Below, one piece after another: positions 9,879 to 25,428 of a DNA stretch of 64,000 nucleotides (positions are counted from its first letter, which is position 1; each line of letters starts with the position of its first letter). Both the position numbers and the translations under genes were made by a program. The notes beneath the pieces were generated by a model. It had not been told where the DNA came from. It worked only from the letters and a program-made list of their open reading frames with translations, and ran no database searches. Where the stretch lies: NCBI RefSeq assembly GCF_030063195.1, contig NZ_JASISS010000011.1, forward strand, positions 1-64,000. The letters run 5' to 3'. This DNA is from Cryobacterium sp. PH31-AA6. GTDB taxonomy: Bacteria > Actinomycetota > Actinomycetes > Actinomycetales > Microbacteriaceae.

Positions 9879-12152
9879 ATGGAGGGTCCAGAAATCACGT
9901 TCGCCGAAACCGTTATCGATAACGGCAAGTACGGAACTCGCACCATCCGCTTCGAAACCGGCCGTCTCGCGCAGCAGGCGCAGGGCTCAGCCGCCGCCTA
10001 CATCGACGAAGAGACCATGCTGCTCTCCGCGACGAGCGCGAGCAAGAACCCCAAGGAGAACTTCGACTTCTTCCCGCTGACCATCGACGTGGAAGAGCGC
10101 ATGTACGCTGCCGGCCGCATCCCGGGCAGCTTCTTCCGCCGCGAAGGTCGCCCGTCGACCGAGGCCATCCTCACCTGCCGTCTGATCGACCGGCCGCTGC
10201 GCCCGTCGTTCGTCGACGGTCTCCGCAACGAGATCCAGGTTGTCGTGACCGTGCTGGCCATCGCGCCGGACGAGTACTACGACGTGCTCGCGATCAACGC
10301 CGCGTCGATGTCGACCCAGCTCGCCGGCCTCCCGTTCTCCGGCCCGATCGGTGGCGTTCGCGTCGCTCTCATCCCCGATGAGAACGGCTCCGGCCAGTGG
10401 GTCGCGTTCCCGAAGCACTCGCAGATCGTCGACGCCGTGTTCAGCATGGTCGTCGCCGGCCGCGTTGTGACCGACGCGAACGGCGCGCAGGATGTCGCGA
10501 TCATGATGATCGAGGCCGAAGCCACCGACAACGCGTGGAACCTCATCAAGGGCGGCGCCATCAAGCCGAACGAAGAGGTCATCGCCGAGGGCATCGAAGC
10601 ATCGAAGCCGTTCATCAAGCAGCTCATCGAAGCGCAGCAGAAGGTTGCCGCCTCGGCCGCCAAGCCGACCGGCGCCTACCCGGTGTTCCCGTCCTACCAG
10701 CCGGCCACCTACGACGCCGTCGCCGCTCTCGCGTACGACCAGCTGAAGGCCGTCTACCAGATCGCGGACAAGATCGAGCGCCAGAACGCGGATGACGCGC
10801 TCAAGGCAACCGTCAAGGACGCCATCGCCGCGAAGGTCGAAGCCGGCGAGCTCGAAGCCGGCGCCAACGCGCAGGTTTCCGCCGCGTACAAGTCGGTCAC
10901 CAAGCTCGTCGTGCGCTCGCGCGTGCTCAACGAGGGCATCCGCATCGACGGCCGTGGGCTCGCGGACATCCGCCCGCTCGACGCCGAGGTTGCCATCATC
11001 CCGCGCGTGCACGGTTCGGCGATCTTCCAGCGCGGCGAGACCCAGATCCTGGGTGTCACCACGCTGAACATGCTCAAGCTCGAGCAGACGATCGACTCCC
11101 TGAGCCCGGTCACCAAGAAGCGCTACATGCACAACTACAACTTCCCGCCCTACTCGACCGGTGAAACCGGCCGCGTCGGAACGCCCAAGCGCCGCGAGAT
11201 CGGCCACGGAGCGCTCGCTGAGCGTGCCCTGGTTCCCGTGCTGCCGACGCGTGAGGAATTCCCCTACGCGATCCGTCAGGTGTCTGAGGCTCTCAGCTCC
11301 AACGGTTCGACCTCGATGGGTTCCGTCTGTGCATCCACCCTCTCGCTGCTCAACGCCGGAGTGCCGCTGCGCGCCCCGGTCGCCGGCATCGCGATGGGCC
11401 TGATCAGCGACACGGTTGACGGAAAGACCCGCTACGCGGCCCTGACCGACATCCTCGGCGCCGAAGACGCCCTCGGCGACATGGACTTCAAGGTTGCCGG
11501 CACGAGTGAATTCGTCACTGCGATCCAGCTGGACACGAAGCTCGACGGCATCCCCGCGTCGGTGCTCGCCGGCGCGCTCACCCAGGCCAAGGATGCTCGT
11601 TCGACCATCCTCGCCGTGCTGAACGCCGCCATCGATGCCCCGGACGAGATGGCCCCGACCGCGCCCCGCGTGATCAGCGTGCAGATCCCCGTCGACAAGA
11701 TCGGCGAGCTGATCGGCCCGAAGGGCAAGACGATCAACGGGATCCAGGACGAGACCGGCGCCGACATCTCCATCGAGGAGGACGGCACCGTGTACATCGG
11801 CGCCGTCGACGGACCGTCCGCTGAGGCCGCCCGTGCCATGGTCAACTCCATCGCGAACCCGACCAACCCCGAGGTCGGTGAGCAGTTCCTCGGCACCGTG
11901 GTGAAGATCGCCGCCTTCGGCGCGTTCGTCTCGCTGCTCCCGGGCAAGGACGGCCTGCTGCACATCAGCGAGGTGCGCAAGCTCGCCGGTGGCAAGCGGG
12001 TGGAGAACGTCGAAGACGTGCTCGGCGTGGGCCAGAAGGTCCTCGTGGAGATCACCAAGATTGACGACCGTGGCAAGCTTTCGCTCGCCCCGGTTCTCGA
12101 AGAGTCGGCCGACGCCGACTCGGCGGACGCATCGGTCACCACCGAGGCGTAG
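9879..12152 (+). CDS. pnp: Polyribonucleotide nucleotidyltransferase (PNPase)
   Basis: 757 aa. Two RNase PH domains separated by the alpha-helical domain, then a KH domain starting near residue 602 ([17 protein letters not shown] with GxxG) and an S1 domain from about 666 ([25 protein letters not shown] split motif). It degrades RNA 3'->5' phosphorolytically and takes part in mRNA turnover, here alongside two RNase J proteins in the same window. Start ATG 9879 follows AAAAAAAGGAGAG. A terminator follows the gene, and a structured leader precedes it. The neighbour expected downstream in many actinobacteria, the M16 peptidase, is instead 30 kb away. Confidence 0.98.
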
Positions 12153-12907: not shown

Positions 12908-13989
12908 GGCTTCAGCCTCTCGGGCGCGTCGGGTGCACGGGCGGCGCTAATCTCGCTCGCCGGGTCCGCGCCGGCCCGGACCGGAGTGAGGCGCCGGCGG
13001 GGCTCGTCCGCCCGCTCGGCGTGGGTGTGCCGCTCGACCGCCTCGAGGAGGGCGCGTTCGGCCGGAGTGGCGTCCTGCGGGTGGAGAAGCAGGCTGTCGC
13101 GCACCTCGACGTAGCGCCGGTAGAGACGCGCTCCCGGCTCACGTGCGAGGGCGAGGAACAGGCGAGGCGCAGCCGCTTCGAGGCTGAGCTCGGGGGAGTC
13201 CGCGATCAGCCGTTCCCAGAGCGGTGTGATGCGCAGGAGGAGTGCCCGCTCTCGCAGGCTTCGCTGCACCGACGCGACGCTGTCCACCGCGGTCGTCAGG
13301 CCCAGGCCGATGGCGAGACAGATCGGGGCCGTGATCAATGCCGCGAAATACGGCACCCTGGACCAGTTGGTGAATGCCTCGTCCTGGTGCAGGCTCGACA
13401 TTGTCGCGTTGGTCAGGCTCACCACGGAATAGACCAGAACTCCGAGGCAGCCGACGGCCACGAAGGCGAGGGAAACCCTGGTCACCCTTCGGCGCTGCCT
13501 AGGCAGGTCGGCCAGACACGCGCGTGCGACGGAAACGGAGAAATAGGCGAGAGCGATCCACGTGGTCGAGGCATACAGCGTGTAGTCCCAGCGGCTGACG
13601 AACATGTGTTGGATGCCGTCCGTGAGACGCCAGTCGCTGCCGAAGAACAGGGCAGCCTGAACGGCGATGATGACAAGGCCGACGGCGATGGTGCCCCGTT
13701 GCCTCGCACGGGTGATTCCGCCTTCGACCGTGGCATCCTGCACGAGGCTGTCGACCAGGGCCAGTGCGATGATGGCGAAAGCGTGGAAGACGAAATAGGT
13801 GATGTTCACGCCCCCGATGGCGGGATCGACGATATCGTAGATGGGCGCTGGCTGCAGGGTCATCGCGGCCGCAAAGACGACCAGGAACCAGAACAGCAGC
13901 AGTCGGCGGCCATGCAGGGCGGCCTTCAGGCAGAGGAGCGCGGCAACCCAGAGGAGACCAGCCATGCCGATCTGGATGGCGCCCAGCAT
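12904..13989 (-). CDS. Seven-helix membrane protein with cytoplasmic tail (MAB_1171c-like)
   Basis: 361 aa. About seven hydrophobic segments fill residues 1-235 (for example IGMAGLLWVAALLCL, FHAFAIIALALVDSL, GTIAVGLVIIAVQAALFFG), followed by a charged, probably cytoplasmic tail of about 125 residues rich in Arg and Glu. It resembles the actinobacterial MAB_1171c family annotated as putative transporters, whose function is unknown to me beyond that name. Start ATG overlaps the peptidase stop by one base (TGATG) and its own stop overlaps the HTH gene (ATGA), so all three are translationally coupled. Topology with a tail larger than typical loops suggests a receptor as much as a transporter. Confidence 0.75.
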   Translation of the reverse strand: MLGAIQIGMAGLLWVAALLCLKAALHGRRLLLFWFLVVFAAAMTLQPAPIYDIVDPAIGGVNITYFVFHAFAIIALALVDSLVQDATVEGGITRARQRGTIAVGLVIIAVQAALFFGSDWRLTDGIQHMFVSRWDYTLYASTTWIALAYFSVSVARACLADLPRQRRRVTRVSLAFVAVGCLGVLVYSVVSLTNATMSSLHQDEAFTNWSRVPYFAALITAPICLAIGLGLTTAVDSVASVQRSLRERALLLRITPLWERLIADSPELSLEAAAPRLFLALAREPGARLYRRYVEVRDSLLLHPQDATPAERALLEAVERHTHAERADEPRRRLTPVRAGADPASEISAARAPDAPERLKP

Positions 13990-14483
13990 CAGAGCACCCT
14001 TCCGAACCCGGTGCGCGGGCCGATGCGGGCATCGGTGCGATCGCCCAACATGACCAGGGCGAGTTCGTCGCCGATGGCCTCGGCGAGGGCCTCCTGCTCG
14101 TCGGTGAAGCTGCTCCGGGAGAGCGCGTGCACGATCGCGTCCATCGGGATCAGCGGCGCCAGCAGCGCGACACGTTCGGCCGGGAGGAGTTCCTTCTCAT
14201 GCCGGAGGATCATGTGCCCGTACTCGTGGTTGATGAACTGCTGGCGGTGCACGGCCGATTCGGTCGGCGCGTAGTGCACCCGTTCGAAGTCCTCGCCCGC
14301 GATCTCCAGCCACAGTCCGCAGACCCCGGACGTGACCATCTGGGCACTGGCGGGTCGGATCACGATGCGTTTCCGGCGCAGGCCCTCCATGTGACTGTGC
14401 AGAGTGTCGGCCGTGAGCGGCCGCGGCAGGTCGAGGTCGGCGACCAGTTGGCGGGCCCGCTCCCGGCGTTCTTCGCGCTTCAC
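13989..14483 (-). CDS. ImmA/IrrE family metallopeptidase
   Basis: 164 aa. Zinc-peptidase motif HEYGH at residues 86-90 with a downstream acidic helix containing E131 and E135 (DEQEALAEAIGDEL) for the third ligand, the layout of ImmA/IrrE (COG2856) proteins. Such peptidases cleave or inactivate XRE-type repressors in ICEBs1 (ImmA/ImmR) and Deinococcus (IrrE/DdrO). No signal peptide. Start is GTG 14483 preceded by ACGGAG. It leads a three-gene operon with a membrane protein and an EspR-like HTH protein. No integrase, phage or conjugation gene is nearby, so this is a chromosomal cassette rather than an obvious mobile one. Confidence 0.85.
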   Translation of the reverse strand: MKREERRERARQLVADLDLPRPLTADTLHSHMEGLRRKRIVIRPASAQMVTSGVCGLWLEIAGEDFERVHYAPTESAVHRQQFINHEYGHMILRHEKELLPAERVALLAPLIPMDAIVHALSRSSFTDEQEALAEAIGDELALVMLGDRTDARIGPRTGFGRVL

Positions 14484-14523
14484 GCTGGTCTCCGTTTCGT
14501 GGGTCCGCGGCGTGTTGGCAAAC

Positions 14524-14573
14524 GTTGGACATGTCTAATTCGTGCTACCGTTGGATTCGGTTGGACATGTCTA
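14524..14573. promoter_or_regulatory. Duplicated operator-like sequence before the peptidase cassette
   Basis: GTTGGACATGTCTA occurs twice in the same orientation (14524-14537 and 14560-14573), 36 bp apart, each holding the 8-bp palindrome GACATGTC. Read toward the cassette, each also supplies TAGACA, a -10-like hexamer. Two more GTTGG units lie between and beside the copies. Most likely the control site of the cassette, perhaps bound by its own HTH protein. Confidence 0.6.
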
Positions 14574-14710
14574 GGCTACCGGTTTCCGGAACCGCCCGGA
14601 CCTCTGTGTGATCTGCGCGTCACGTGTCGGGCGAAAGCGGGGGGCATGTGGACGTTCGCGTGGCGCGGTGCGGTCGGGGTGGGACCGCACCGCATGCCCT
14701 GCCCATCTAT

Positions 14711-14739
14711 TTGAGAATATTGTAAATTAGCGATATGCT
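14711..14739 (+). promoter_or_regulatory. Promoter of the ArsR gene
   Basis: TTGAGA (14711-14716), 17-nt spacer, TATGCT (14734-14739). The transcription start is then expected at about 14746, which is the GTG start codon, so the mRNA would be leaderless. The spacer is AT-rich (ATATTGTAAATTAGCGA), unusual here and plausible as an ArsR operator. Confidence 0.7.
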
Positions 14740-14745
14740 CGGGTG

Positions 14746-15087
14746 GTGTCGACCACCGGACTGCCCATGGCCCTTCTCAAGGCCGAACTGTTCAAATCGC
14801 TCGGGCATCCCCTGCGTGTGCAGGTGCTCGAGCAGCTCGTCGGCGGCGAACGCTCCGTCGGCAGCCTGGCCGAGGCGCTCGGTTCCGAACTCTCCAATCT
14901 CTCGCAGCAGCTCGGCGTGCTCCGCCGGGCCGGGGTCGTCATCACCCGGCGCGAGGGCAACACGATCTACTACGGGCTGCGCGATCCGATGGTCGCCGAA
15001 TTGCTCGCGGTCGCCAAGCGGATGCTGGTGGCCACCCTCGAAGACTCCAACGCGCTCCTGCGCACGATCGAGCAGGACATTCCCTAG
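14746..15087 (+). CDS. ArsR family transcriptional regulator (Rv0081-like)
   Basis: 113 aa (114 from the adjacent GTG at 14743). Winged-helix ArsR fold: KAELFKSLGHPLRVQVLEQL, then the recognition helix region SNLSQQLGVLRRAGVV and the beta-wing REGNTIYYGL. No Cys pair of metal-sensing ArsR proteins is visible. Size and neighbourhood match Rv0081 of M. tuberculosis, a hypoxia-linked regulator that heads the Rv0082-Rv0087 operon. Here the gene instead converges on the operon from its 3' side, its stop lying 14 bp from the hycE-like stop. Control of the hydrogenase-like operon is inference from that parallel. Confidence 0.85.
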   Translation: MSTTGLPMALLKAELFKSLGHPLRVQVLEQLVGGERSVGSLAEALGSELSNLSQQLGVLRRAGVVITRREGNTIYYGLRDPMVAELLAVAKRMLVATLEDSNALLRTIEQDIP

Positions 15088-15101
15088 CCGTCCGGGAGGC
15101 G

Positions 15102-16610
15102 CTACAGGTCGTTCCCCGCGTAGGACTGGTTGAAGCTCTTGTTCACCAGGGGAAAGTCGGGCACGATCGTCTCTGCCAGCGCCACCGGAAGGGCCGGCCA
15201 GTTGAAGTAGGACGGATCGACGATCTTCACCCGGGTGAGGCGGCCGTCGGCGCCCAGCTCGGCCCGGTGGCAGATCGTGCCGCGCCAGCCCTCGACCAGG
15301 GAAACCCCGGCGCCAGGCCCGACGGGGTCGACCGCCCGGCCGCTGCCCAGTCGGCCGTCCAGGCGGCGGATGAGATCGGTCGCCACGGCGATGGATACCG
15401 CGAGTTCCCCAGCGCGCACCCGGTAGCGGCCGAGCACGTCCCCGCCGGTGTCCGTGACGACGTGGAACGCCTCGCCGAGGTCGACGAACGGATGGTCGCG
15501 GCGGGCATCCGCGTCGATGCCGGAGGCCCTCGCCACGTAGCCGAGCGTTCCCATCGCCTCGGCCTGAGCGGTCGGGAGGGGCGCGGTGCCGGTGAAGCGA
15601 TCCCGAACGATGGCGTGGCCGAGGGTGACGGCGATGATCTCCTGCATCTCGGCCCCAACCCGGTCGAGCTCGGCGGGGTCGGGGAGCGCGAGCACGGCGG
15701 CCCCGCCGATGGTCAGGCCGCCGCGGAGGTACCGGTGCCCGGTCACGGCCTGGTTCAGGCGGAGCAGGGTCTCCCTCAGCCGCTGGGTGTGGGAGTGCAC
15801 GATGCCGAAGCCGACGTCGTTGGCGAGACCGCCGAGGTCGGACACGTGGTTGTAGATGCGTTCGAGTTCGAGCAGGAGGGCGCGCAGCATCCGGTCCTCC
15901 TCGGAGACCTGGATGCCCGCGGCCGCCTCGACGGCCATCAGCCAGGCCACGGTGTGGCCGGCGACGGTGTCGCCGGTGACCTGTTCGGCCAGCTCAACCG
16001 CGTCGCGGGGGAGTCGGCCCTCGAAGAGCCGTTCGACGCCCCGGTGCATGTACCACTGGCGCGCTTCCATCCGCACGATGGTCTCGCCCACGACGGAGAA
16101 GCGGAAGTGGCCGGGGTCGATGATCCCGGCGTGGATGGGGCCGACCGCGATCTCGTAGACGCCGGGTCCCTCGACCTCGACGAACGGGAACGACTCGGTG
16201 TCGGGCAGGAACTCGGGATCGGCCATGGCGTCCCGGCGCATCGGGTACCAGCCGCGGGGCCAGTGGCCGTGCCGCACCAGTCGGAACGGCTGCGGGTGGT
16301 CGGCCGGGCGCACCCCGAACAGGTCGCGCATGCCCCGCTCGAAGTTGCCGGCCGGGTAGGAGAGATCGGCCAGGCTCGGCACCCAGGCGTCGTCGTAGGG
16401 CACCGGCACGACCAGATCGATCCGGCGGCGCGGGTACACGGCCGCGAAGGAATACACCACGCGCAGGGCGTCACCGTCGTCGTGGCAGGTGATGATCGCG
16501 AGCCGGTTCCCCTCCGAGAGCACGGCGGCGGCCTGCTCCCGGAGGTCGTCGCGAGCGACGGGGCGCACGTCGGGTTCCTGGGTCGGCTGGGTCGACATCG
16601 ACGGGGTCAT
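15102..16610 (-). CDS. hycE: Hydrogenase large-subunit-like protein without Ni ligands (HycE/Rv0087-like)
   Basis: 502 aa. An N-terminal NuoC-like domain (about 1-160) is fused to a NuoD/hydrogenase large-subunit-like domain. True [NiFe] enzymes carry RGxCxxC and a C-terminal DPCxxC. Here the first site reads HRGVERLFEGR near residue 188 and the C-terminus ends KSFNQSYAGNDL, both without Cys, so no Ni-Fe centre can be bound in the known way. It belongs with energy-converting hydrogenase-related complexes and complex I. ATG 16610 overlaps the hycQ stop (ATGA). It is the last gene of the operon. Electron donor and acceptor are unknown. Confidence 0.88.
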   Translation of the reverse strand: MTPSMSTQPTQEPDVRPVARDDLREQAAAVLSEGNRLAIITCHDDGDALRVVYSFAAVYPRRRIDLVVPVPYDDAWVPSLADLSYPAGNFERGMRDLFGVRPADHPQPFRLVRHGHWPRGWYPMRRDAMADPEFLPDTESFPFVEVEGPGVYEIAVGPIHAGIIDPGHFRFSVVGETIVRMEARQWYMHRGVERLFEGRLPRDAVELAEQVTGDTVAGHTVAWLMAVEAAAGIQVSEEDRMLRALLLELERIYNHVSDLGGLANDVGFGIVHSHTQRLRETLLRLNQAVTGHRYLRGGLTIGGAAVLALPDPAELDRVGAEMQEIIAVTLGHAIVRDRFTGTAPLPTAQAEAMGTLGYVARASGIDADARRDHPFVDLGEAFHVVTDTGGDVLGRYRVRAGELAVSIAVATDLIRRLDGRLGSGRAVDPVGPGAGVSLVEGWRGTICHRAELGADGRLTRVKIVDPSYFNWPALPVALAETIVPDFPLVNKSFNQSYAGNDL

Positions 16611-18124
16611 TGGATTCCTCCCAGAACGGCGGCCGCGCGCGCCAGGAGCGTGCCGACCGGCTCGGCGATGAAGGCGACCACCGCGGTGGCGCCCAGGGCG
16701 AGGAAGAGGGGCAGGCGGGGGCCGTGGGACGACCGGTCCGGCGGGACGGCGTCGGGACGCTCGCCGGTCACGGCGTCGCCGGCCCCGTCCAGCCTGGTTT
16801 CGGCCGCGACGCCCGGTGCGGGAGCGGCGGCCGGGGCGCCGATGGTCATGGCGACCGTCAGCCGGGTGAGCGCGGCGAAGATGACGAGCAGCAGCACCAG
16901 CGCGATTCCGACGACGACGCCCAGGCCGGCGTCGAAACCGGCGACGATGATGCCGATTTCCGAGAAGAAGATGCTGAACGGGGGAAACCCGACCAGGGCG
17001 GCCATGGCGATCAGCCACGGAACGGCGAGGCCTGGGCGGCGAACGAGCAGGGCACGGACATCGTCGATCCGGGGGGTGCCCTCCACCTCGAGGATGCGGC
17101 CGGAGAGCACGAACAGCGTCGCCTTGGTCAGGCCGTGGCCGAGCACGTAGAGCAGTACGGCGGGCAGGGCGGCGGCGCCGATGGCGGCACCCACAGCCAT
17201 CATCCCCATGTGCTCGATGCTGGAGTAGGCCAGCATCCGTTTGAAGTCGCGTTGCCGGATCAGCAGGGCTGCGGCCACGAACAGGGAGAGCAGGCCGCCG
17301 ACGCTGAGCATCACGCGCAGGAAGTCCGGCCCGATCACGGCGTTGGTGATGGTTTGGATGCGCAGGATGGCGTAGAGGGCGACCGCGAGCAGAACCCCGC
17401 TCATCAGCCCGGAGACCGGAGCGGGCGCCTGGCTGTGCGCGTCGGGCAGCCAGCTGTGCATCGGGGCGAGCCCCGCCTTGGTGGCGAAGCCGAGCACGGC
17501 GAGTGCGCCTCCCGCCCGGATCAGGGTCGGGTCGAGCGGCAGGCCGGTGCGGCTGAGTTCGAGCCAGGACAGGGTCGGTTCCCCCGTTCCGCGTGAGGCG
17601 GCGTAGATCAGCACGATCCCGAGCAGGGCGATGGCGACGCCGACCGAGCCGAGGATGACGTATTTCCAGGCGGCCTCCAGCGACGAACGGGTGCGGTGAT
17701 GCCCGACCAGGAAGGCGGTGGTGATCGTGGTGGCCTCGACGGCGGCCCACATCAGCCCGATGTTGTCGGCCAGGACCGCGAGCGACATCGCGGCCAGGAA
17801 CACCGAGATCAGGGCGTCGTAGGAGCCGGCGTAGCGGCCGGGAACAACGGTGGCATGGCCGAGCCCGCCCCAGGTGGACACCAGTCCGACCGCGCCGACG
17901 ACGGTGAGCATGTAGGCGGACAGGGCGTCCGCTCTGAGCAGTCCGCCGCCGAGGTCGGGGACCGTCCCCGCGAGCACCGCACCGTCCAGGAGCAGGCCGG
18001 AGGCGAGCACGGCGGCGCTGGACCCGACCGGGCCGAGGCGAGCGAACTGTCGCGAGCCGCCGGCGAGGCTGAGCGCGGCCAGGACGACCGGAACGGCCAG
18101 AGGGATCCACAGGGCGAAAGACAT
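16607..18124 (-). CDS. hycQ: Membrane antiporter-like subunit (HycQ/HyfF/NuoN type)
   Basis: 505 aa polytopic protein of the Mrp/NuoLMN family with some 12-14 hydrophobic segments. The conserved lysine helix GFATKAGLAPMHSWLPDAHS and the second half motif YSSIEHMGMM are visible, so proton or ion translocation residues appear retained. Size is close to M. tuberculosis HycQ (488 aa). The start ATG overlaps the HycP stop by one base (TGATG). A hydrophilic insert of about 45 residues (GAPAAAPAPGVAAETR onward) lies before the last helix. It should sit in the membrane arm of the complex. Confidence 0.9.
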   Translation of the reverse strand: MSFALWIPLAVPVVLAALSLAGGSRQFARLGPVGSSAAVLASGLLLDGAVLAGTVPDLGGGLLRADALSAYMLTVVGAVGLVSTWGGLGHATVVPGRYAGSYDALISVFLAAMSLAVLADNIGLMWAAVEATTITTAFLVGHHRTRSSLEAAWKYVILGSVGVAIALLGIVLIYAASRGTGEPTLSWLELSRTGLPLDPTLIRAGGALAVLGFATKAGLAPMHSWLPDAHSQAPAPVSGLMSGVLLAVALYAILRIQTITNAVIGPDFLRVMLSVGGLLSLFVAAALLIRQRDFKRMLAYSSIEHMGMMAVGAAIGAAALPAVLLYVLGHGLTKATLFVLSGRILEVEGTPRIDDVRALLVRRPGLAVPWLIAMAALVGFPPFSIFFSEIGIIVAGFDAGLGVVVGIALVLLLVIFAALTRLTVAMTIGAPAAAPAPGVAAETRLDGAGDAVTGERPDAVPPDRSSHGPRLPLFLALGATAVVAFIAEPVGTLLARAAAVLGGIQ

Positions 18125-18780
18125 CAGTCGTGCAACTTTCTGAGCTGATCAATGTCGGTGTTGCCGAACTTATTGCGCATCCGGCCGGCGAAGACGTAGA
18201 GGATGACCACGACCAGCAGCACGTCGAGGGAGATGCCCAGCTCGAGAAACAGCGGAACCCCGCCGGAGGTCAGGAACGCGACGGTGGCGATGCCGTTGTC
18301 GAGCACGAGGAAGCCGATCAGCTGCGAACCTGCCTGCCGCCGGGTGACCAACAGCAGGAAGCCGATCAGCACCATGGCGAGCCCGATCCCGGCGGCGTGA
18401 GCCGAGACGCTCGAATCGTCCCGGAGCAACCGGCTGGCGACGACGTAGCTGAGGATGGTCAGCAGCGCCACGGTCAGGAGGCCGGCCGTCGGATTCAGCC
18501 GCGGCGCCTCGTCCGTGCGCGTGGTGGCGCGGGTCTCGTGGGCGAGCACCCATGGCAGGCCCATCCCTTTGACCAGCAGTACGAGGACGGAGACGATGAT
18601 GACCTCGGCCGCACCCTCCTCGACGCCGATCACGGCCACCAGGGCGGCCAGAGCGAAACCTTGTGCGCTGAGCAGCCGGATCGAGGCGAGCAGGGAGTGG
18701 CGCCAGACCATCAGCGCGCTGGTGAGCAGCAGGGCGCCGGTGCAAAGGCCGATCAGTTGGGGGTAGACGGTGTCGAACAC
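18124..18780 (-). CDS. hycP: Membrane subunit HycP/HyfE-like (NuoK type)
   Basis: 218 aa integral membrane protein with about seven hydrophobic helices, including AEVIIVSVLVLLVKGMGLPWVL with the Glu and Lys usual in HyfE/NuoK-like subunits. Size matches M. tuberculosis HycP (220 aa). Start is GTG 18780, with AGGAG overlapping the hycD stop region and 8 bp between genes; longer readings of this frame run into the hycD coding region and are not credible. Operon position between HycD and HycQ is the same as in Rv0084-Rv0086. Confidence 0.87.
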   Translation of the reverse strand: MFDTVYPQLIGLCTGALLLTSALMVWRHSLLASIRLLSAQGFALAALVAVIGVEEGAAEVIIVSVLVLLVKGMGLPWVLAHETRATTRTDEAPRLNPTAGLLTVALLTILSYVVASRLLRDDSSVSAHAAGIGLAMVLIGFLLLVTRRQAGSQLIGFLVLDNGIATVAFLTSGGVPLFLELGISLDVLLVVVILYVFAGRMRNKFGNTDIDQLRKLHD

Positions 18781-18788
18781 GGATGCTC

Positions 18789-19751
18789 CTAAGCGACCAG
18801 GTAGGAGGCGGTCACGGCGAGCAGGGCCAGGGCGAACGACCCCGCCAGCAACTCGGGCACCCGGAACAGGCGCACCTTGGCGAGGAAGACCTCGCCGACG
18901 CTGAGCAGGGCGCCGAGCACGAGCACCTTCACGGTGACGGCGGCCAGGCCGACGAGCACGCCCGCCACGGAGAAGTCGGTCAGAACGCCCCAGGGCAGGA
19001 TCAGGTTGCTGAGCAGGCCGAGCAGGGCGGCGAGCTTGAGCCAGGAGCCCAACTCGAGCCAGGCCAGGTCGCGCCCGGACGCCTCGAGAACCATGGCCTC
19101 GTGCAGCATTGTCAGTTCGAGGTGGGTGGAGGGGTTGTCGATCGGCAATCGGCTGGTTTCGGCCATGATGGCGATGGCCAGGGCGACCATCGCGAGCAGG
19201 CTCACGGGTGAGATGATCACCGCCGGGTTCTCCAGCCGGGTCTCCACGATCAGCGACAGGGTGGAGGTGCCGGCCGGGATGGACAGCGCGTAGACCGCCA
19301 GCAGCAGGGTTGGTTCGACCAGGGCGGCCACGGTCATGTGCCGGCTGGAACCCATCCCGCCGAACGCGGTTCCCGCGTCCAGGCCGACCAGGGCCAGGGC
19401 CACCACGCCGATCAGCATGATCGAGACGATGACGAAGAGGTCGCTCGGCACCAGCGGCAACGGCAGCGTGCCGACGAGGGGCAGCAGCACGCAGAGCAGC
19501 AGGCTGGAGACGAGGAGGGCGACCGGGCCGACCGTGAGCATCCAGCTGCTGTCCGCCGCACGCACCGGGTCCTTGGCAACGAGCTTGCGCACGTCGCGCC
19601 ACGGTTGCCAGAGGCCGGAACCCGCCCGCCCCTCAAGCCTGGCCCGCACCTGGCGGATCACGCCGATCAGCAGGGGAGCGAGGAACACGAAGAGCGCGAG
19701 TTGCAGCAGGGCGATCGGGATCGCCGCGAGGTTCACAGCGCCCGATATCAC
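18789..19751 (-). CDS. hycD: Membrane subunit HycD-like (NuoH type)
   Basis: 320 aa, about eight membrane helices. Typical HycD/NuoH elements: ARLEGRAGSGLWQPWRDV near residue 40 (the loop contacting the peripheral arm), AGTAFGGMGSSR, and MAETSRLPIDNPSTHLELTM with acidic residues near the quinone/ion path. It anchors the soluble arm to the membrane. Start GTG 19751 overlaps the stop of the HyfB-like gene as GTGA. Size agrees with M. tuberculosis HycD (316 aa). Confidence 0.9.
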   Translation of the reverse strand: MISGAVNLAAIPIALLQLALFVFLAPLLIGVIRQVRARLEGRAGSGLWQPWRDVRKLVAKDPVRAADSSWMLTVGPVALLVSSLLLCVLLPLVGTLPLPLVPSDLFVIVSIMLIGVVALALVGLDAGTAFGGMGSSRHMTVAALVEPTLLLAVYALSIPAGTSTLSLIVETRLENPAVIISPVSLLAMVALAIAIMAETSRLPIDNPSTHLELTMLHEAMVLEASGRDLAWLELGSWLKLAALLGLLSNLILPWGVLTDFSVAGVLVGLAAVTVKVLVLGALLSVGEVFLAKVRLFRVPELLAGSFALALLAVTASYLVA

Positions 19752-21766
19752 AGCGACACCACGATCAGCACGACGAGCAGGGCAAGGAAGGAATAGGACA
19801 GGTAACGGTGAATGCTGCCGTTCTGCGCCCGCCGGGCGCGAACGCCGAACCGTTGGGCGAGGATGAGCACGGGGCGGTAGAGCCGGGTCTCGATCACGTC
19901 GGAGACACTCTGCTCGACGTGGACGCGTTCGACCAGGTAGCGGGACTCGCCGACGTGGGTGACCTCGACGTCGCGGGTGGGGCGGAGCACGTCGTCGAAG
20001 ACCCGCACCAGGGGCTCGGCGTAGGAGGTCGCGGTGTACTGCATCCGTGGGCGCAGCCGGGAACCGCCGCCGGCCCAGGGCAGGGGCGACACTCGGGTGG
20101 GGTGGCGCCTCGCCGAGGCGAGCACGGCCATCAGCACGGGGACGAGCAGGACGGCGGCGAGGGCGAGGAGGGTGGTCGGGTCCAGCACCACGTCGATTCC
20201 GCGGGCGTCGATGCCGGCCAGTCCGATCGTGCGCACGTCCGGCCTGAACGCCGGTCCGAGTGCCGAGGCGAGTGCCTCGGCGAGCGGGCCGGGCAGCAGG
20301 CCGAGCCCGACCACGAGGATGGCGCCGATGGCGAGCGGGACGCGCATGATCACGGGGACCTCGCGGGCCTGCTTCGCCTTCACGGAGCGGGGGCGGGCGA
20401 GGAAGGCGATGCCGTAGGCCTTGACGAAGGTGAGCAGGGCCAGCCCGGCGGTGAGGGCGATCACGGCGACGGCGAGCGGCATGGCGACGGATGCCGTGAC
20501 GGAGACGACCTCCCCGCCGACCCGGGAGCCGTGCACCAGGGCCTGCAGCAGCATCCACTCGGCCACGAAACCGCCGGTGACCGGCAGGGCGGCGGCGCCG
20601 AGGGCGGCCGCTCCGAAGGCCGCGGCGGTCCACGGCATCCGGCTGCCGAGACCGCCGAGCCGGTCGAGGTTCATCTCACCGGTGGACCGGGCCACCGCAC
20701 CGGCGCCGAGGAACAGCGTGGCCTTGAACGCGGCGTGGCTGACCATCAGCAGCAGTGCGGCCAGGAGGGCGGCATCGGCGGCGCCGGTCGCGTGGTCGCC
20801 GCGCAGCAGCACCGAGGCGCCGAGGCCGAGGAAGACCAGGCCCATGTTCTCGGTGGTGGAGTAGGCGAGCAGAACCTTGAGGTTGCTGGCCACCGAGGCC
20901 TGCAGGATCCCATAGAGCGCCGACACGGCGCCGAGGGCCATGACCAGCACGCCCCACCAGGCCGGTCCGTTCGGCAGCAGCCGCACGCAGACCAGGAGGG
21001 CGCCGTAGACGCCGATGTTGACCATCGCGCCACTCATCGCGGCGGCGACATGGCCGGGGGCCTCCGGTAGCACCCGCGGAACCCAGACGTGCAGGGGGAC
21101 GAGTTCCGCCTTGCCACCGAAGCCGAGAAGGAGCAGCACGAAGGCCAGGCTCGCCTGCCAGGATGCGGGGTCGAGCGTCGCCAGCGCCGCGAAGCCGGTT
21201 CCGCCGGTGACGCCGGCCAGCACCGCGAAACCGGCCACCACGAAGAAGAAGCTCAGCTGGCTCATCGCCGAGTACCAGACCAGCGCGGATGCGACCGTGC
21301 CGCGGGTCGCGTGGTGGGCCAGCAGCAGCGCCGTCGAGCCCAGTGTCATGATCTCCCAGAACAACAGGAACGACACGACATCGGTGGCGGCCGGCACCAA
21401 CTGCATCCCGAACAGGAACACGGCCATCGACACCCAGGCGGTGCGGGACGCGGAGGCGACCCTGGCCGAGCCGATGCCGAACAGCGAGGCGAGCAGGCCG
21501 ACCACGGACACGACGAGCATGACCAGGCCGCCGAGGCGGTCGGGGGAGAGGACGAGCGGGTCCAGGGGCAGGGCGGTGGGGATGGTCAGCGAACCCCGAC
21601 CGCCGAAGAGTGCGAGCGCGCCGGTGACGACACCGGCCCCGGCGAGCAGGGCGCAGAGGATGCCGCTCACCCGCGAGCGCCACCGTGACGAGGTGAGTAG
21701 GGCAGCGGCGACGGCGGTGAGCATCAGGAGAACCTGGCCGAGCATCCCGGCCGCGACGCTGGTCAT
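19748..21766 (-). CDS. Large antiporter-like subunit (HyfB/Rv0083 type, NuoL family)
   Basis: 672 aa polytopic NuoL/M-type protein with about 15 helices. Key segments: WEIMTLGSTALLLAHH (conserved Glu), LLGFGGKAELVPLHVWVPRV (lysine helix), YSTTENMGLVFLGLG and SHAAFKATLFLGAGAV (second lysine helix), then a C-terminal extension ending in a last helix (YLSYSFLALLVVLIVVSL). These features support an ion-pumping subunit. M. tuberculosis Rv0083 is about 640 aa. ATG 21766 overlaps the NuoB-like stop (ATGA); the frame continues upstream but only as a shadow of that gene. Confidence 0.9.
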   Translation of the reverse strand: MTSVAAGMLGQVLLMLTAVAAALLTSSRWRSRVSGILCALLAGAGVVTGALALFGGRGSLTIPTALPLDPLVLSPDRLGGLVMLVVSVVGLLASLFGIGSARVASASRTAWVSMAVFLFGMQLVPAATDVVSFLLFWEIMTLGSTALLLAHHATRGTVASALVWYSAMSQLSFFFVVAGFAVLAGVTGGTGFAALATLDPASWQASLAFVLLLLGFGGKAELVPLHVWVPRVLPEAPGHVAAAMSGAMVNIGVYGALLVCVRLLPNGPAWWGVLVMALGAVSALYGILQASVASNLKVLLAYSTTENMGLVFLGLGASVLLRGDHATGAADAALLAALLLMVSHAAFKATLFLGAGAVARSTGEMNLDRLGGLGSRMPWTAAAFGAAALGAAALPVTGGFVAEWMLLQALVHGSRVGGEVVSVTASVAMPLAVAVIALTAGLALLTFVKAYGIAFLARPRSVKAKQAREVPVIMRVPLAIGAILVVGLGLLPGPLAEALASALGPAFRPDVRTIGLAGIDARGIDVVLDPTTLLALAAVLLVPVLMAVLASARRHPTRVSPLPWAGGGSRLRPRMQYTATSYAEPLVRVFDDVLRPTRDVEVTHVGESRYLVERVHVEQSVSDVIETRLYRPVLILAQRFGVRARRAQNGSIHRYLSYSFLALLVVLIVVSL

Positions 21767-22248
21767 CGGCCGGTCATCCGGCGTAGGGCCTCGACGATGA
21801 GGGCGGGGGCCGGCGGGTTGCCGGGCACGGAGAGGTCGACGTGAACGAAGTCGGACACCACTCCGGCGATCCCGTAGCCCGCCGCAAAGACGCCGCCGGT
21901 GAGGGCGCAGTCCCCGACCGCGATGACGAAGCGCGGGGTGGGGGTGGCGTCGACCGTGCGCCGGAGCGGCTCGATCATGTTCCGGGTCACCGCGCCCGTG
22001 ATCAGCAGCACATCGGCGTGCCGCGGCGAGGCCACCAGCCGGATGCCGTAACGCTCCACGTCGTAGACCGGGCCGAAGGCGCTCGCTACCTCCTGGGCGC
22101 AGTCGTTGCAACCGCCGGCGTTGACGAACCGCACCTGCACGCTGCCGCCGAAGACCTCGGCGCCTCTGAAAAGGTCGGGGGCCGGCGGGGCAGCCTCGGC
22201 GATGCGTCCGCTCTGCCTGATCAGGCGGGTCAGGCGCGTGACGCTCAC
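21763..22248 (-). CDS. NuoB/HycG-like Fe-S small subunit (Rv0082-like) with an altered cluster ligand
   Basis: 161 aa. NuoB-type proteins bind the proximal [4Fe-4S] cluster with four Cys. Here C47 and C50 (GGCNDCAQEV) and C114 (VGDCALTGG) are present, but the usual VPGCPPxP motif reads VPGNPPAP, giving Asn144 (codon AAC) in place of the fourth Cys. Either the cluster has an unusual ligand or is lost. It is the first gene of the operon. Start GTG 22248 has poor spacing to any SD and follows an 11-codon upstream ORF by one base. M. tuberculosis Rv0082 has about the same length. Confidence 0.87.
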   Translation of the reverse strand: MSVTRLTRLIRQSGRIAEAAPPAPDLFRGAEVFGGSVQVRFVNAGGCNDCAQEVASAFGPVYDVERYGIRLVASPRHADVLLITGAVTRNMIEPLRRTVDATPTPRFVIAVGDCALTGGVFAAGYGIAGVVSDFVHVDLSVPGNPPAPALIVEALRRMTGR

Positions 22249-22574: not shown

Positions 22575-23087
22575 CTAGGTGTCTGTGCGGTCCGCAGCGG
22601 CGTTGCGGCCGACGCCGGCGTCGCGTCCGGCACGGTCCAGCAGCGGGGTGACCCGGTAGGGGATGAGCTCGCCCATGGCGAGCGACGTCTCGGTGCGATC
22701 GACGCCTTCGCAGGCGAGAATGGTGCCGTCGATCCGGAAGAGATCGTCGGCATCCGTGCAGACCACCCGCACCAGGATGTCGGTCGGGCCGCTCATGCCG
22801 TGCGCCTGCACGATCTCCGGGATGAGGGTGAGCTCGGCGATGATCTGGGCGAGGCGTTTCTGCTGCACGTGCACCTCGATGAACGCGGTCAGCGGGTAGC
22901 CGAGGGCGACCGGGCTGATCCGGCGGTCAAAGGAGAGGAACGCCTTCGACTCCTCGAGCCTGGCCATCCGGGCCTGGACGGTGTTCCGGGAGAGCCGGAG
23001 CTGCTGGGCGAGGGCGACGAAGGTGCTGCGCGGATCGACGCACAGGGCGCGGAGCAACTGTAGGTCGACTCTGTCCAGGCTGTGCAT
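22575..23087 (-). CDS. Lrp/AsnC family transcriptional regulator (BkdR-like)
   Basis: 170 aa. N-terminal HTH (DRVDLQLLRALCVDPRSTFV, then LRLSRNTVQARMARLE) and C-terminal RAM/AsnC ligand domain (IPEIVQAHGMSGPTDILVRV). Lrp proteins beside branched-chain keto acid dehydrogenase genes respond to branched-chain amino or keto acids. It is divergent from the bkd genes, so control of them is likely. ATG 23087 is preferred over an upstream ATG at 23105 because TAATCT lies 8 nt before it, matching the leaderless promoters elsewhere in the window. The C-terminal 20 residues are charged and unconserved. Confidence 0.87.
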   Translation of the reverse strand: MHSLDRVDLQLLRALCVDPRSTFVALAQQLRLSRNTVQARMARLEESKAFLSFDRRISPVALGYPLTAFIEVHVQQKRLAQIIAELTLIPEIVQAHGMSGPTDILVRVVCTDADDLFRIDGTILACEGVDRTETSLAMGELIPYRVTPLLDRAGRDAGVGRNAAADRTDT

Positions 23088-23095
23088 AGTGCACG

Positions 23096-23101
23096 AGATT
23101 A
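23096..23101 (-). promoter_or_regulatory. -10 box of the Lrp gene
   Basis: TAATCT on the minus strand with 8 nt to ATG 23087, predicting a leaderless or nearly leaderless mRNA. No good -35. Confidence 0.4.
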
Positions 23102-23154
23102 GCACGCAGAAGGACCCCTGAATAGAGCAGAATGCCCAGTCTCTCTCGAGATGG

Positions 23155-23183
23155 TTGTGCTCCGTGCCGCGTGAACGTACGCT
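23155..23183 (+). promoter_or_regulatory. Promoter of the bkd operon
   Basis: TTGTGC (23155-23160), 17-nt spacer, TACGCT (23178-23183); start expected near 23190, about 32 nt before bkdA. Confidence 0.55.
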
Positions 23184-23221
23184 CTCAACAACTTCGGCAA
23201 CGACGCTGGGAGCGGCTCACA

Positions 23222-24331
23222 ATGTCAGACTCATTCACGGGGTACACCCCCGCCAATCTCTTACAGCTCGTGTCACCGGATGGCGCGCGGGTGGCATCGG
23301 ACACGGCCGATCCCTGGCTGGAGGATGTCTCTGCTGCGGACCTCGTCGGCCTGTACCAGGACATGGTCGTCGTGCGACGGATCGACACCGAGGCGACGGC
23401 GCTGCAGCGGCAGGGGGAGCTCGGCCTGTGGCCGCCGCTGCTCGGCCAGGAGGCCGCCCAGGTCGGCTCGGCCAGAGCCCTCCGCCCCGACGACTTCGTC
23501 TTCACCAGCTACCGCGAGAACGCCGTGGCGTGGTGCCGCGGGGTCAGCCTGACCGACATCGTGCGGGTGTGGCGCGGCAACGCGCAATCCGGCTGGGACC
23601 CGTACTCCGTTGGCATGGCGGCGCCGGCGATCATCATCGGCGCGCAGACCCTCCATGCCACCGGATGGGCCCTCGGCGCCAAGTTCGACGGCACCGACTC
23701 GGTGGCGGTGGCCTACTTCGGCGACGGTGCCACGAGTGAGGGCGACGTGAGCGAGGCTCTGGTCTTCGCCGCCAGCTTCCAGGCGCCGGTCGTCTTCTTC
23801 TGCCAGAACAACCAGTGGGCGATCTCCGAGCCGGTCGGCCTCCAGTCCCGTGCCAACCTGGTCGACCGGGCGCTCGGCTTCGGTATCCCCGGCATTCGGG
23901 TCGACGGCAACGACGTGCTCGCCGTTCTCGCGGCCACCCGGATTGCGCTGGACCGCGCCCGCACCGGCGGGGGGCCGACGTTCATCGAGGCGGTCACCTA
24001 TCGGATGGGGCCGCACACCACGGCCGACGATCCCACCCGCTATCGTCCGGCCGCCGAGCTGGAGGAATGGAAGGCCAAGGACCCGATCCTGCGGGTCGAG
24101 CGGTTGCTGGACTGGGGGGGGCTCCTCACCGCCGAGCTCGTCGCCCAGACCACGGGACTGGCGGATGCCGCGGCCGCCGAGCTGCGGGCCGGCTGCATCG
24201 GCCTGGCCGACCCGGAGCCGCTCACGGTCTTCGACCACGTCTTCGCCACCCCCAACGCCACCCTCGACCGTCAGCGGACCGAGTACGCCCACTACCTGGC
24301 AAGTTTCGAAACCACCGGAGGGAACGCGTGA
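23222..24331 (+). CDS. bkdA: Branched-chain 2-oxoacid dehydrogenase E1 alpha subunit
   Basis: 369 aa thiamine diphosphate enzyme subunit. The TPP motif GDGATSEGD is at 167-175 followed by NN at 196-197, and the phosphorylation-loop region YRMGPHTTADDPTRY is present. With E1 beta and E2 it decarboxylates 2-oxoacids from leucine, isoleucine and valine to acyl-CoA. ATG 23222 is chosen with GGGAG upstream; the longer frame from 23132 is not conserved in character. Its stop overlaps the next start by one base (TGATG). A PDH-type E1 is the alternative, but the Lrp neighbour and the leucine genes downstream favour branched-chain substrates, as for Rv2497c. Confidence 0.9.
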   Translation: MSDSFTGYTPANLLQLVSPDGARVASDTADPWLEDVSAADLVGLYQDMVVVRRIDTEATALQRQGELGLWPPLLGQEAAQVGSARALRPDDFVFTSYRENAVAWCRGVSLTDIVRVWRGNAQSGWDPYSVGMAAPAIIIGAQTLHATGWALGAKFDGTDSVAVAYFGDGATSEGDVSEALVFAASFQAPVVFFCQNNQWAISEPVGLQSRANLVDRALGFGIPGIRVDGNDVLAVLAATRIALDRARTGGGPTFIEAVTYRMGPHTTADDPTRYRPAAELEEWKAKDPILRVERLLDWGGLLTAELVAQTTGLADAAAAELRAGCIGLADPEPLTVFDHVFATPNATLDRQRTEYAHYLASFETTGGNA

Positions 24332-25428
24332 TGACCATGACCGCCATGACGAGGCCGACGGCATCCGCCCCACTCGGCCAGACGACCGGCGCCGGCGGCG
24401 ATGCCCGGGAGCCTGTGGCCGCGCCGCGCACCCCGGAGCCGCTGGAAACGACGACCACCCTGACCATGGCCAAGGCGATCAACGCCGGACTCCGTCAGGC
24501 CATGCTCGACGACCCGAAGGTGGTGCTGCTCGGCGAGGACATCGGCCTGCTCGGCGGCGTCTTCCGGGTGACCCAGGACCTGCTCGCCGAATTCGGCGCG
24601 CGCCGGGTGATCGACACGCCGCTGGCCGAGTCCGCGATCATCGGCACCGCGGTCGGCCTTGCCTACCGCGGTTACCGCCCTGTCTGCGAGATTCAGTTCG
24701 ACGGGTTCATCTTCCCCGGCTTCGACCAGATCGTCAGCCAGGTGGCCAAGCTGCACTACCGCAGCCAGGGCCGGGTGAGCATGCCGATCACCATCCGGGT
24801 GCCGTTCGGTGGCGGAATCGGCGCGGCGGAGCACCACTCGGAGTCGCCGGAGGCCTACTTCACCCACACCTCCGGGCTGCGCGTGGTCGCGGTCTCCAAC
24901 CCGCAGGACGCCTACGGCCTCATCCGCCAGGCGATCGCCTCGGATGACCCGGTGCTCTACTTCGAACCCAAGCGCCGCTACCACGTCAAGGGCGAGGTCT
25001 CGCCGGAGCTCGGCCAGCCGATGGAGCGCGCGGCGATCGTCGCCGCGGGCACCGACGTCACCCTGCTCTGTTATGGGGCGCTGGTGACCACGGCGAGGGA
25101 TGCCGCGCTCGCCGCGTCCGACGAGGGCGTCTCGGTCGAGGTCATCGACCTGCGCTCGCTCTCCCCGGTGGACTACGAGACCATCGAGGCCTCCGTGCGG
25201 AAGACCGGCCGACTCGTCATCACCCACGAGGCCGCCCGCTCAGGGGGGCTCGGCGGGGAGATCGCGGCGGTGATCACCGAACGCTGCTTCGACTACCTCG
25301 AGGCCGCGCCCGTGCGGGTCACCGGCTTCGACATCCCGTATCCGGCGGCGAAGCTGGAGAGCCACCACCTGCCCGACCTCGACCGGATCCTCGATGGCGT
25401 CGACCGCGCATTGGGGCGTCGGCGATGA
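24331..25428 (+). CDS. bkdB: Branched-chain 2-oxoacid dehydrogenase E1 beta subunit
   Basis: 365 aa. Transketolase-type pyrimidine-binding domain (GEDIGLLGGVFRVTQ with the conserved Glu, DTPLAESAIIGTAVGLAYRG) and a C-terminal transketolase domain (EVIDLRSLSPVDYETI, VITHEAARSGGLGGEI). An unconserved 45-residue N-terminal extension rich in Ala, Pro and Thr precedes the domain. GGAGGG lies upstream of ATG 24331. The stop overlaps the E2 start (ATGA), so E1 and E2 are coupled. Confidence 0.92.
   Translation: MTMTAMTRPTASAPLGQTTGAGGDAREPVAAPRTPEPLETTTTLTMAKAINAGLRQAMLDDPKVVLLGEDIGLLGGVFRVTQDLLAEFGARRVIDTPLAESAIIGTAVGLAYRGYRPVCEIQFDGFIFPGFDQIVSQVAKLHYRSQGRVSMPITIRVPFGGGIGAAEHHSESPEAYFTHTSGLRVVAVSNPQDAYGLIRQAIASDDPVLYFEPKRRYHVKGEVSPELGQPMERAAIVAAGTDVTLLCYGALVTTARDAALAASDEGVSVEVIDLRSLSPVDYETIEASVRKTGRLVITHEAARSGGLGGEIAAVITERCFDYLEAAPVRVTGFDIPYPAAKLESHHLPDLDRILDGVDRALGRRR

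What the first reader, a model, noticed from the sequence alone, without database searches (positions are those of the whole stretch)
15102..22248. Hydrogenase-4-like membrane complex with no nickel-iron site
All membrane subunits (NuoL/M-, NuoN-, NuoH-, NuoK-type) look intact and keep conserved Glu/Lys helices, but the large subunit lacks both Cys pairs that bind Ni-Fe (HRGVERLFEGR and a C-terminus ending KSFNQSYAGNDL). No formate dehydrogenase, ferredoxin subunit (HycB/HycF type) or hyp maturation gene is in the window. The complex matches the energy-converting hydrogenase-related group and M. tuberculosis Rv0082-Rv0087. What reaction drives the pump is unknown.
Basis: partly seen in the sequence, partly recalled or inferred. 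Interest (0 to 1): 0.75.

Follow-up and report, generated by a model that had tools for sequence, protein, structure and literature searches.

The report
Hydrogenase-like ion pump losing redox centres
A six-part bacterial membrane machine related to respiratory complex I has lost its nickel-iron site and part of its only iron-sulphur site, while its ion channels stay intact, which suggests it may move ions without the electron transfer that drives its relatives.

Summary
Window 15102-22248 (minus strand) encodes six contiguous subunits (NuoB-, HyfB-, HyfC/NuoH-, HyfE-, HyfF-, NuoCD-like). The four Ni-Fe cysteine positions hold Thr212, Thr215, Ser496 and Gly499. It is an energy-converting hydrogenase-related (Ehr) complex, a printed family of unknown function, in a Cryobacterium-like actinobacterium.

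Of 127 loci with a small subunit, 35 depart from four Cys. Within the window's type, loss arose at least twice: in Microbacteriaceae (Cys to Ser/Asn; in two genomes three of four gone) and in a clade of mostly small-genome, CPR-like bacteria (three or four gone). Shared origin is rejected. Ion-path residues and purifying selection persist.

Best reading: an ion-translocating complex that no longer needs electron transfer (inferred, 0.5). Against it: the window keeps three Cys and 92 of 127 keep four. A sister Ehr type has fluoride riboswitches upstream of 8 of 9 testable operons. Most of its members lost the same ligands, but 7 of those 9 carry an added ferredoxin-like motif, so that type is not cofactor-free. 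New variant of a known kind.

The parts
21763..22248 (-). S: small (NuoB/HycG-like) subunit, 161 aa, GTG start
   Evidence: Pfam PF01058, 92.4 bits; best PDB sequence match HycG 7z0s_G; AlphaFold2 mean pLDDT 93.8
22099..22110 (-). Fe-S ligands Cys47 and Cys50 (CNDC), kept
21907..21909 (-). Fe-S ligand Cys114 (GDC), kept
21817..21819 (-). Asn144 (AAC) in PGNPP, where HycG, MbhJ and most relatives have the fourth Fe-S ligand Cys (PGCPP)
   Evidence: alignment with 7z0s_G and 6cfw_J; 92 of 127 loci with a small subunit keep all four Cys
19748..21766 (-). B: HyfB/NuoL-M-like antiporter subunit, 672 aa; Glu138, Lys219, His344, Lys348, Glu403 present
   Evidence: PF00361, 146.6 bits; residue conservation
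18789..19751 (-). C: HyfC/HycD/NuoH-like subunit, 320 aa, GTG start; Glu198, Arg201, Asp205, Glu212 present
   Evidence: PF00146, 115 bits
18124..18780 (-). E: HyfE-like membrane subunit, 218 aa, GTG start
   Evidence: NCBIfam NF008556, E 3e-19, below its cut-off; no Pfam match
16607..18124 (-). F: HyfF/NuoM-N-like antiporter subunit, 505 aa; Glu130, Lys216, His330, Lys334 present
   Evidence: PF00361, 188.5 bits
15102..16610 (-). G: fused NuoC-NuoD/HycE-like large subunit, 502 aa
   Evidence: PF00329, PF00346 and PF00374; Foldseek best match 7z0s_E, E 8.9e-33
15966..15977 (-). T212-G-D-T215 in place of the N-terminal Ni-Fe CxxC
   Evidence: alignment with HycE; among type-1 relatives G213 130/130 and D214 128/130
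15102..15140 (-). KSFNQSYAGNDL-stop; Ser496 and Gly499 in place of the C-terminal Ni-Fe CxxC; the protein ends where the motif ends
   Evidence: alignment with HycE; among type-1 relatives S496 124/127, Y497 127/127, G499 125/127, D501 128/128
14743..15087 (+). ArsR-family regulator, convergent with the operon, no Cys
   Evidence: PF01022 and PF12840; an ArsR-like gene lies near 63 of 147 loci

Best explanation
An Ehr complex that no longer works as a redox enzyme. Shown by sequence: the Ni-Fe ligands are replaced by a conserved, oxygen-rich set of residues (S/T-G-D-T/S and S-x-x-G-N-D), the only [4Fe-4S] cluster has lost a ligand, and the proton-path residues of the three ion-path subunits examined (B, C and F) are intact. 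Inferred: the S-G module now acts as a ligand-binding or gating head on the NuoH-like subunit. It couples conformational change to ion movement through the two antiporter-like subunits, so the complex runs on an existing ion gradient, either as a proton/cation (or anion) exchanger or by driving a non-redox reaction, as the DabA/DabB inorganic-carbon pump is thought to do. Substrate and ion are not identified.
For: (1) Fe-S ligands depart from CCCC in 35 of 127 loci that hold a small subunit, 30 of 119 after thinning at 90% large-subunit identity. (2) Within the window's type at least two independent losses: a Microbacteriaceae clade (99/98 support) with Cys4 to Ser/Asn, its G483 and G475 members down to one Cys; and a separate clade of mostly small-genome bacteria with three or four of four gone. 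Holding the lost rows of that tree together is rejected, p-AU 5e-59; the group was named after the tree was seen. (3) Four genomes share Asn (WIN, L128, L129, L130), so it is not a sequencing error. (4) In all 26 lost type-1 rows B keeps E138, K219, H344, K348, E403; F keeps E130, K216, H330, K334; C keeps E198, R201, D205, E212. (5) dN/dS 0.02-0.21 for the complex's genes over eight pairs, 0.10-0.17 for the one-Cys pair L137/L138. (6) No CxxCxxC motif in 25 of 26 lost type-1 small-subunit frames, and no Fer4 match in P0001, L081, L137, L184, L187, L189. (7) No HypD, NuoF or second hydrogenase or complex I large subunit in the genome.
Against: The window's own small subunit keeps three of four Cys; a three-Cys [3Fe-4S] or [4Fe-4S] cluster cannot be excluded, and Ser in the Cryobacterium relatives could be a ligand. 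92 of 127 loci keep all four, so in most of the family a cluster is under selection. The sister type that lost the same ligands has a CxxCxxC ferredoxin-like motif in 7 of 9 lost members, so it may have moved its redox centre rather than dropped it. L190, a long-branch type-1 outlier, has such a motif too. F Glu389 is changed in 2 of 26 lost type-1 rows. No ligand or energy input was identified; the pocket parts of the large-subunit model have pLDDT under 50. dS is near or above 1 for L137/L138.
Confidence: 0.5

Rival explanations
1. Still a redox enzyme: the three remaining cysteines hold a [3Fe-4S] or unusual [4Fe-4S] cluster that passes electrons between a soluble carrier and an unknown substrate at the former Ni site, coupled to ion pumping (the FDH-Ehr type of model).
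For: Cys47, 50 and 114 are kept in the window and in all 11 CCCN/CCCS Microbacteriaceae rows. Most relatives keep four Cys. PMC6349859 (passages seen) proposes redox-coupled FDH-Ehr complexes in other bacteria. The window genome has one FdhF/YdeP-family protein, on another contig.
Against: Two Microbacteriaceae genomes of the same clade (L137, L138) have one Cys left with operon and ion path kept; no electron-carrier subunit seen in the operon; independent loss in a second clade.
Confidence: 0.3
2. A quinone-reactive, complex I-like oxidoreductase with quinone bound at the former Ni site.
For: Same fold as NuoCD and NuoH-like coupling subunit.
Against: No NuoF in the genome and no NADH module in the operon; the only cluster feeding such a site lacks a ligand. 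Whether complex I's quinone-binding residues are kept was not tested.
Confidence: 0.12
3. A functional [NiFe] hydrogenase with unusual ligands.
For: Closest solved relatives are formate hydrogenlyase subunits.
Against: All four Ni-Fe Cys positions are substituted and no HypD is found in the genome.
Confidence: 0.01
4. A decaying operon (pseudogenes) in which ligands drift freely.
For: Loss of catalytic ligands at two sites.
Against: All six frames open; dN/dS 0.08-0.21 for the six subunits in the three window pairs; ion-path residues kept in 26 of 26 lost type-1 rows; 8 of the 10 same-genus genomes shown have the large-subunit gene.
Confidence: 0.02

Closest known systems
[quoted passage not shown]
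   Same: Complex I/group 4 hydrogenase architecture without the Ni-Fe cysteines; described so in PMC6349859, PMC7304191 and PMC10284858 (passages seen). Marreiros et al. 2013 is the source they cite; not read here.
   Different: The window and its Microbacteriaceae kin also lost one to three of the four Fe-S ligands of the small subunit, which the passages seen do not mention.
Rv0081-Rv0087-type complexes of mycobacteria (compared through Mycobacterium loci L044, L045, L048-L050 and L142)
   Same: Gene order S-B-C-E-F-G and an ArsR-family neighbour
   Different: Those loci keep CCCC; ArsR lies upstream and codirectional in four of five named loci and in L142, at the other end and convergent in the window.
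E. coli formate hydrogenlyase / hydrogenase 4 (HycE, HycG; Hyf)
   Same: Best PDB matches: 7z0s_E and 7z0s_G
   Different: Ni-Fe ligands and one Fe-S ligand absent; no HycB/HycF-like subunit; NCBIfam hydrogenase-4 matches below their cut-offs.
Fluoride-riboswitch-linked Ehr ('type 2' here: L139-L141, L166, L170, L172, L173, L175, L180-L182)
   Same: Ehr architecture without Ni-Fe Cys; 9 of 11 depart from CCCC in the small subunit
   Different: Gene order C-E-F-G-S-B, RF01734 control, frequent N-terminal ferredoxin motif. The window and its genome have no RF01734 match.
Mrp antiporters and DabA/DabB (recalled; DabA seen beside relative L091)
   Same: PF00361 ion-path subunits working without redox chemistry (established knowledge)
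   Different: No Ehr-type NuoB/NuoCD head.

Membership tests
Ehr complexes | NuoCD/HycE-like large subunit without both Ni-Fe CxxC pairs | tested here: met
   (T212, T215, S496, G499)
Ehr complexes | NuoB-, NuoH-, HyfE- and antiporter-like subunits in one operon | tested here: met
   (HyfE-like only by a sub-cut-off NCBIfam match)
Ehr complexes | Complete [4Fe-4S] ligand set in the small subunit, as in most relatives sampled | tested here: not met
   Asn144 instead of Cys. Not stated as defining in the passages seen; 35 of 127 sampled loci also fail it.
Group 4 [NiFe] hydrogenase (Hyc/Hyf) | Four Ni-Fe cysteines | tested here: not met
Group 4 [NiFe] hydrogenase (Hyc/Hyf) | Hyp maturation genes | tested here: not met
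   HypD absent from the 3.68 Mb genome; other hyp genes not searched
Group 4 [NiFe] hydrogenase (Hyc/Hyf) | H2 activity, bound Ni | not testable with these tools
   needs biochemistry
Respiratory complex I | NADH module (NuoF) | tested here: not met
   PF01512 absent from the genome
Respiratory complex I | Quinone-binding residues of NuoD | not tested
   No residue-level comparison with NuoD was made; the model's pocket loops are below pLDDT 50
Fluoride-riboswitch-linked Ehr (type 2) | RF01734 riboswitch upstream of the operon | tested here: not met
   0 matches in the window and in the genome

The most novel reading that the evidence does not exclude
A branch of the complex I superfamily has become a redox-free ion machine. 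Ehr complexes shed first the Ni-Fe site and then, separately in at least two lineages, the last iron-sulphur cluster, keeping only the ion-pumping arm and a repurposed oxygen-lined pocket. The window catches the second loss in progress, and ion or anion stress (as the fluoride-riboswitch control of a sister type hints) is what these complexes serve.
Probability: 0.4. Interest if true: 0.85.

Novelty: new variant of a known kind. Interest (0 to 1): 0.6.

Why it matters
Ehr complexes are reported from many bacteria, including comammox Nitrospira and Candidate Phyla Radiation bacteria, with no known reaction (PMC10284858, PMC7304191; passages seen). If some work with no redox centre, electron transfer is not what they exist for, the search for their substrate moves from electron donors to ions and small ligands, and coupling in the complex I family could be studied in a version stripped of electron chemistry. 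The stepwise Cys series in Microbacteriaceae makes this directly testable.

Tried and rejected
Conserved redox partner gene: clustering of neighbouring frames over 147 loci gave one widespread neighbour, an ArsR-like regulator (63 loci). The other recurrent clusters whose representatives gave Pfam matches (kinase ATPase, ABC transporter, short-chain dehydrogenase, SulP, MFS, MutS-like) were each in 19 loci or fewer; not every cluster was scanned. A SulP anion transporter lies near 9 loci and DabA/DabB beside L091, but DabA in only that one of 147 by BLAST, so an inorganic-carbon role was not adopted.

Type 2 as cofactor-free: this was my first reading. It was rejected when Pfam and motif scans showed a ferredoxin-like motif in 7 of its 9 ligand-lost small subunits.

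Fluoride role for the window itself: no RF01734 in the window or genome.

Structure: both models fold as expected, but pocket loops 158-166 and 499-502 of the large subunit have pLDDT under 50, so no ligand site was modelled.

Rows dropped: L041 (same contig as L138). The 112-row tree left out one near-identical lost row (L129) and thinned 91 CCCC rows to 78 at 80% identity. 20 of the 147 loci had no small subunit found; many of these are cut by contig ends, but they were not sorted one by one. L068 (PCCC) may be a shifted Cys and L180/L181 (CCPS) are ambiguous; all three are counted as lost. G handles and named loci may be the same genome in places; thinning at 90% leaves 119 of 127.
Full report
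Anatomy. The window lies in a 3.68 Mb genome whose GTDB genus also holds genomes (G373, G434, G485) with nearly the same large subunit as Cryobacterium glaciale and C. levicorallinum (L033, L034), so I read it as Cryobacterium or near it. Six genes on the minus strand form one block, several with overlapping start and stop codons. Order: small subunit S (NuoB/HycG-like), B (HyfB-like), C (HyfC/NuoH-like), E (HyfE-like), F (HyfF-like), G (fused NuoC-NuoD/HycE-like). Family assignments. All NCBIfam matches of the six fall below their curated cut-offs. A convergent ArsR-family gene lies at 14743-15087 on the plus strand.

Ni-Fe site. Aligned with E. coli HycE (7z0s_E) the two CxxC pairs become T212-G-D-T215 and S496-Y-A-G499. 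Among the 131 type-1 large subunits sampled, the replacement is itself conserved: Ser/Thr at 212 in 119 of 130, Gly213 in 130 of 130, Asp214 in 128 of 130, Thr/Ser at 215 in 124 of 130, Ser496 in 124 of 127, Tyr497 in 127 of 127, Gly499 in 125 of 127, Asp501 in 128 of 128 (denominators are rows with a residue there). Five other relatives in the same set (L091, L171, L183, L195, L196) keep Cys at all four positions. So the pocket is re-made, not decayed.

Fe-S site. The small subunit should hold the only cluster of the complex. The window has CNDC, GDC and then PGNPP: Asn144 stands where HycG and MbhJ have Cys. After thinning at 90% large-subunit identity it is 30 of 119. The loci were gathered by similarity to the window, so these are not frequencies in nature.

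Independent losses. On a 112-row tree of the large subunit alone, the least number of changes between CCCC and not-CCCC is 6 (quick tree). On a 54-row careful tree of the window's type, the Microbacteriaceae rows form one clade (99/98) next to CCCC relatives, and the TCDD-like rows form another (97/99) that also holds two actinobacterial genomes (L174, L178). Forcing all 21 lost rows together costs 174 log units, p-AU 5e-59, with the caveat that I named the group after seeing the tree. In the Microbacteriaceae clade the fourth ligand is gone in every row with a small subunit (Ser or Asn), and in G483 and G475 (L137, L138) the first and third are gone too. In the other clade L187 and L189 have no Cys in the analysed small-subunit stretch at all.

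Not decay. In the 26 lost type-1 rows the membrane arm keeps its path: B E138, K219, H344, K348, E403; F E130, K216, H330, K334; C E198, R201, D205, E212, each 26 of 26. Exceptions among further residues: F E389 24 of 26 and C K292 25 of 26, the other being Arg. Pairwise dN/dS (eight pairs, Nei-Gojobori) is 0.02-0.21 for the six subunits; the window pairs give 0.08-0.21 and the one-Cys pair 0.10-0.17, with dS near or above 1 in that last pair.

No obvious replacement centre in the window's type. Of 26 lost type-1 small-subunit frames 25 have no CxxCxxC; the exception is L190. P0001, L081, L137, L184, L187 and L189 match only PF01058 at E up to 0.001. The window genome has no HypD, no NuoF and only this locus for PF00374 and PF00346. 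It has three molybdopterin oxidoreductases on other contigs: NarG, a NasC-like protein and an FdhF/YdeP-family protein. A carrier encoded elsewhere cannot be excluded, but without the proximal cluster it would have no known path to the large subunit (inference).

A sister type under fluoride control. Eleven rows (97% SH-aLRT, quick tree) form a second Ehr type: motif VEGxAS or similar, gene order C-E-F-G-S-B. Rfam found 15 fluoride riboswitches in six of ten loci scanned. A model built from them found strong matches in nine type-2 loci and none above 20 bits in the other 138 sources (six of the nine match by construction, while L173, L181 and L182 are new). In 8 of the 9 loci with upstream sequence one lies 31-357 bp before the aligned start of the first subunit, on its strand; in L175 it is 1.8 kb away, and L166 and L172 are cut off. 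In four of the eight (L140, L141, L170, L180) that match also passes Rfam's own cut-off. I did not check for short genes in the gaps. Enolase, CrcB and Usp genes lie beside L139 and L141, and a MutS-like gene beside L140. A 2010 paper already noted this RNA before 'formate hydrogen lyase' genes (PMC2864571, passages seen). Two paper searches for fluoride riboswitch with formate hydrogenlyase or hydrogenase each returned one paper, PMC12595759, seen only in the listing, and a wider one returned the same paper. Results against a simple story: 7 of the 9 ligand-lost type-2 small subunits carry a CxxCxxC motif upstream of the NuoB-like part, with Fer4 matches over cut-off in L139, L140, L141 and L170. 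Type 2 is therefore not redox-free, and it does not show what the window's complex does. The window and its genome have no RF01734 match.

How it most likely works. Shown: architecture, lost ligands, conserved new pocket, conserved ion path, purifying selection. Inferred: the head no longer transfers electrons but binds a ligand or ion and, through the NuoH-like subunit, gates two antiporter-like channels, so the complex is driven by or controls an ion gradient. I put 0.5 on this for the window's complex, because it still has three Cys and most relatives have four. The main rival is a redox enzyme with a three-Cys cluster (0.3).

Structures. AlphaFold2 models: small subunit mean pLDDT 93.8, best Foldseek match 7z0s_G; large subunit 88.7, best match 7z0s_E, TM-score 0.89 by query length. 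The pocket loops are too uncertain to model a ligand.

Literature. Ehr complexes without Ni-Fe cysteines are in print (PMC6349859, PMC7304191, PMC10284858; passages seen). I saw no mention of small-subunit ligand loss in those passages or in the listings, which is a limited search of open papers. Mycobacterial Rv0081-Rv0083 regulation by DevR, MprA and Rv0081 is stated in PMC5484546 (passages seen).

Noticed in passing
L139, L140, L141, L170, L173, L180, L181, L182 (upstream of first operon gene): Fluoride riboswitches directly before Ehr-type operons of a second kind; enolase, CrcB and Usp genes beside L139 and L141, a MutS-like gene beside L140. These may be the 'formate hydrogen lyase' genes of the 2010 crcB-motif paper.
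   Followed up: partly
L171, L183 (large subunit): Ehr-like complexes with Cys at all four Ni-Fe positions but an unusual first motif (ACAGC / ACAAC); possible intermediates between Ehr and hydrogenases.
   Followed up: no
L091:2-3700 and 13675-15510: A planctomycete Ehr-like operon that keeps the Ni-Fe Cys pairs is flanked by DabA plus an antiporter subunit, and by a SulP transporter.
   Followed up: partly
L089, L095, L098, L101, L104, L106: SulP-family transporter gene shortly upstream of the Ehr operon on the same strand.
   Followed up: partly
L187, L188, L189 small subunit: Small-genome bacteria with none of the four Fe-S cysteines; Asp or Glu stand at two or three of the four positions in L187, two in L188 and L189.
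   Followed up: partly
window 9916-10008 (-): ARAGORN calls a tRNA-Ser (GCT) antisense inside the ORF at 9879-12152, whose translation looks like polynucleotide phosphorylase (recalled, not searched); probably a false call.
   Followed up: no
window 22575-23105 (-) and 23132-26810 (+): AsnC/Lrp-family regulator divergent from what looks like a 2-oxoacid dehydrogenase gene set (recalled, not searched).
   Followed up: no
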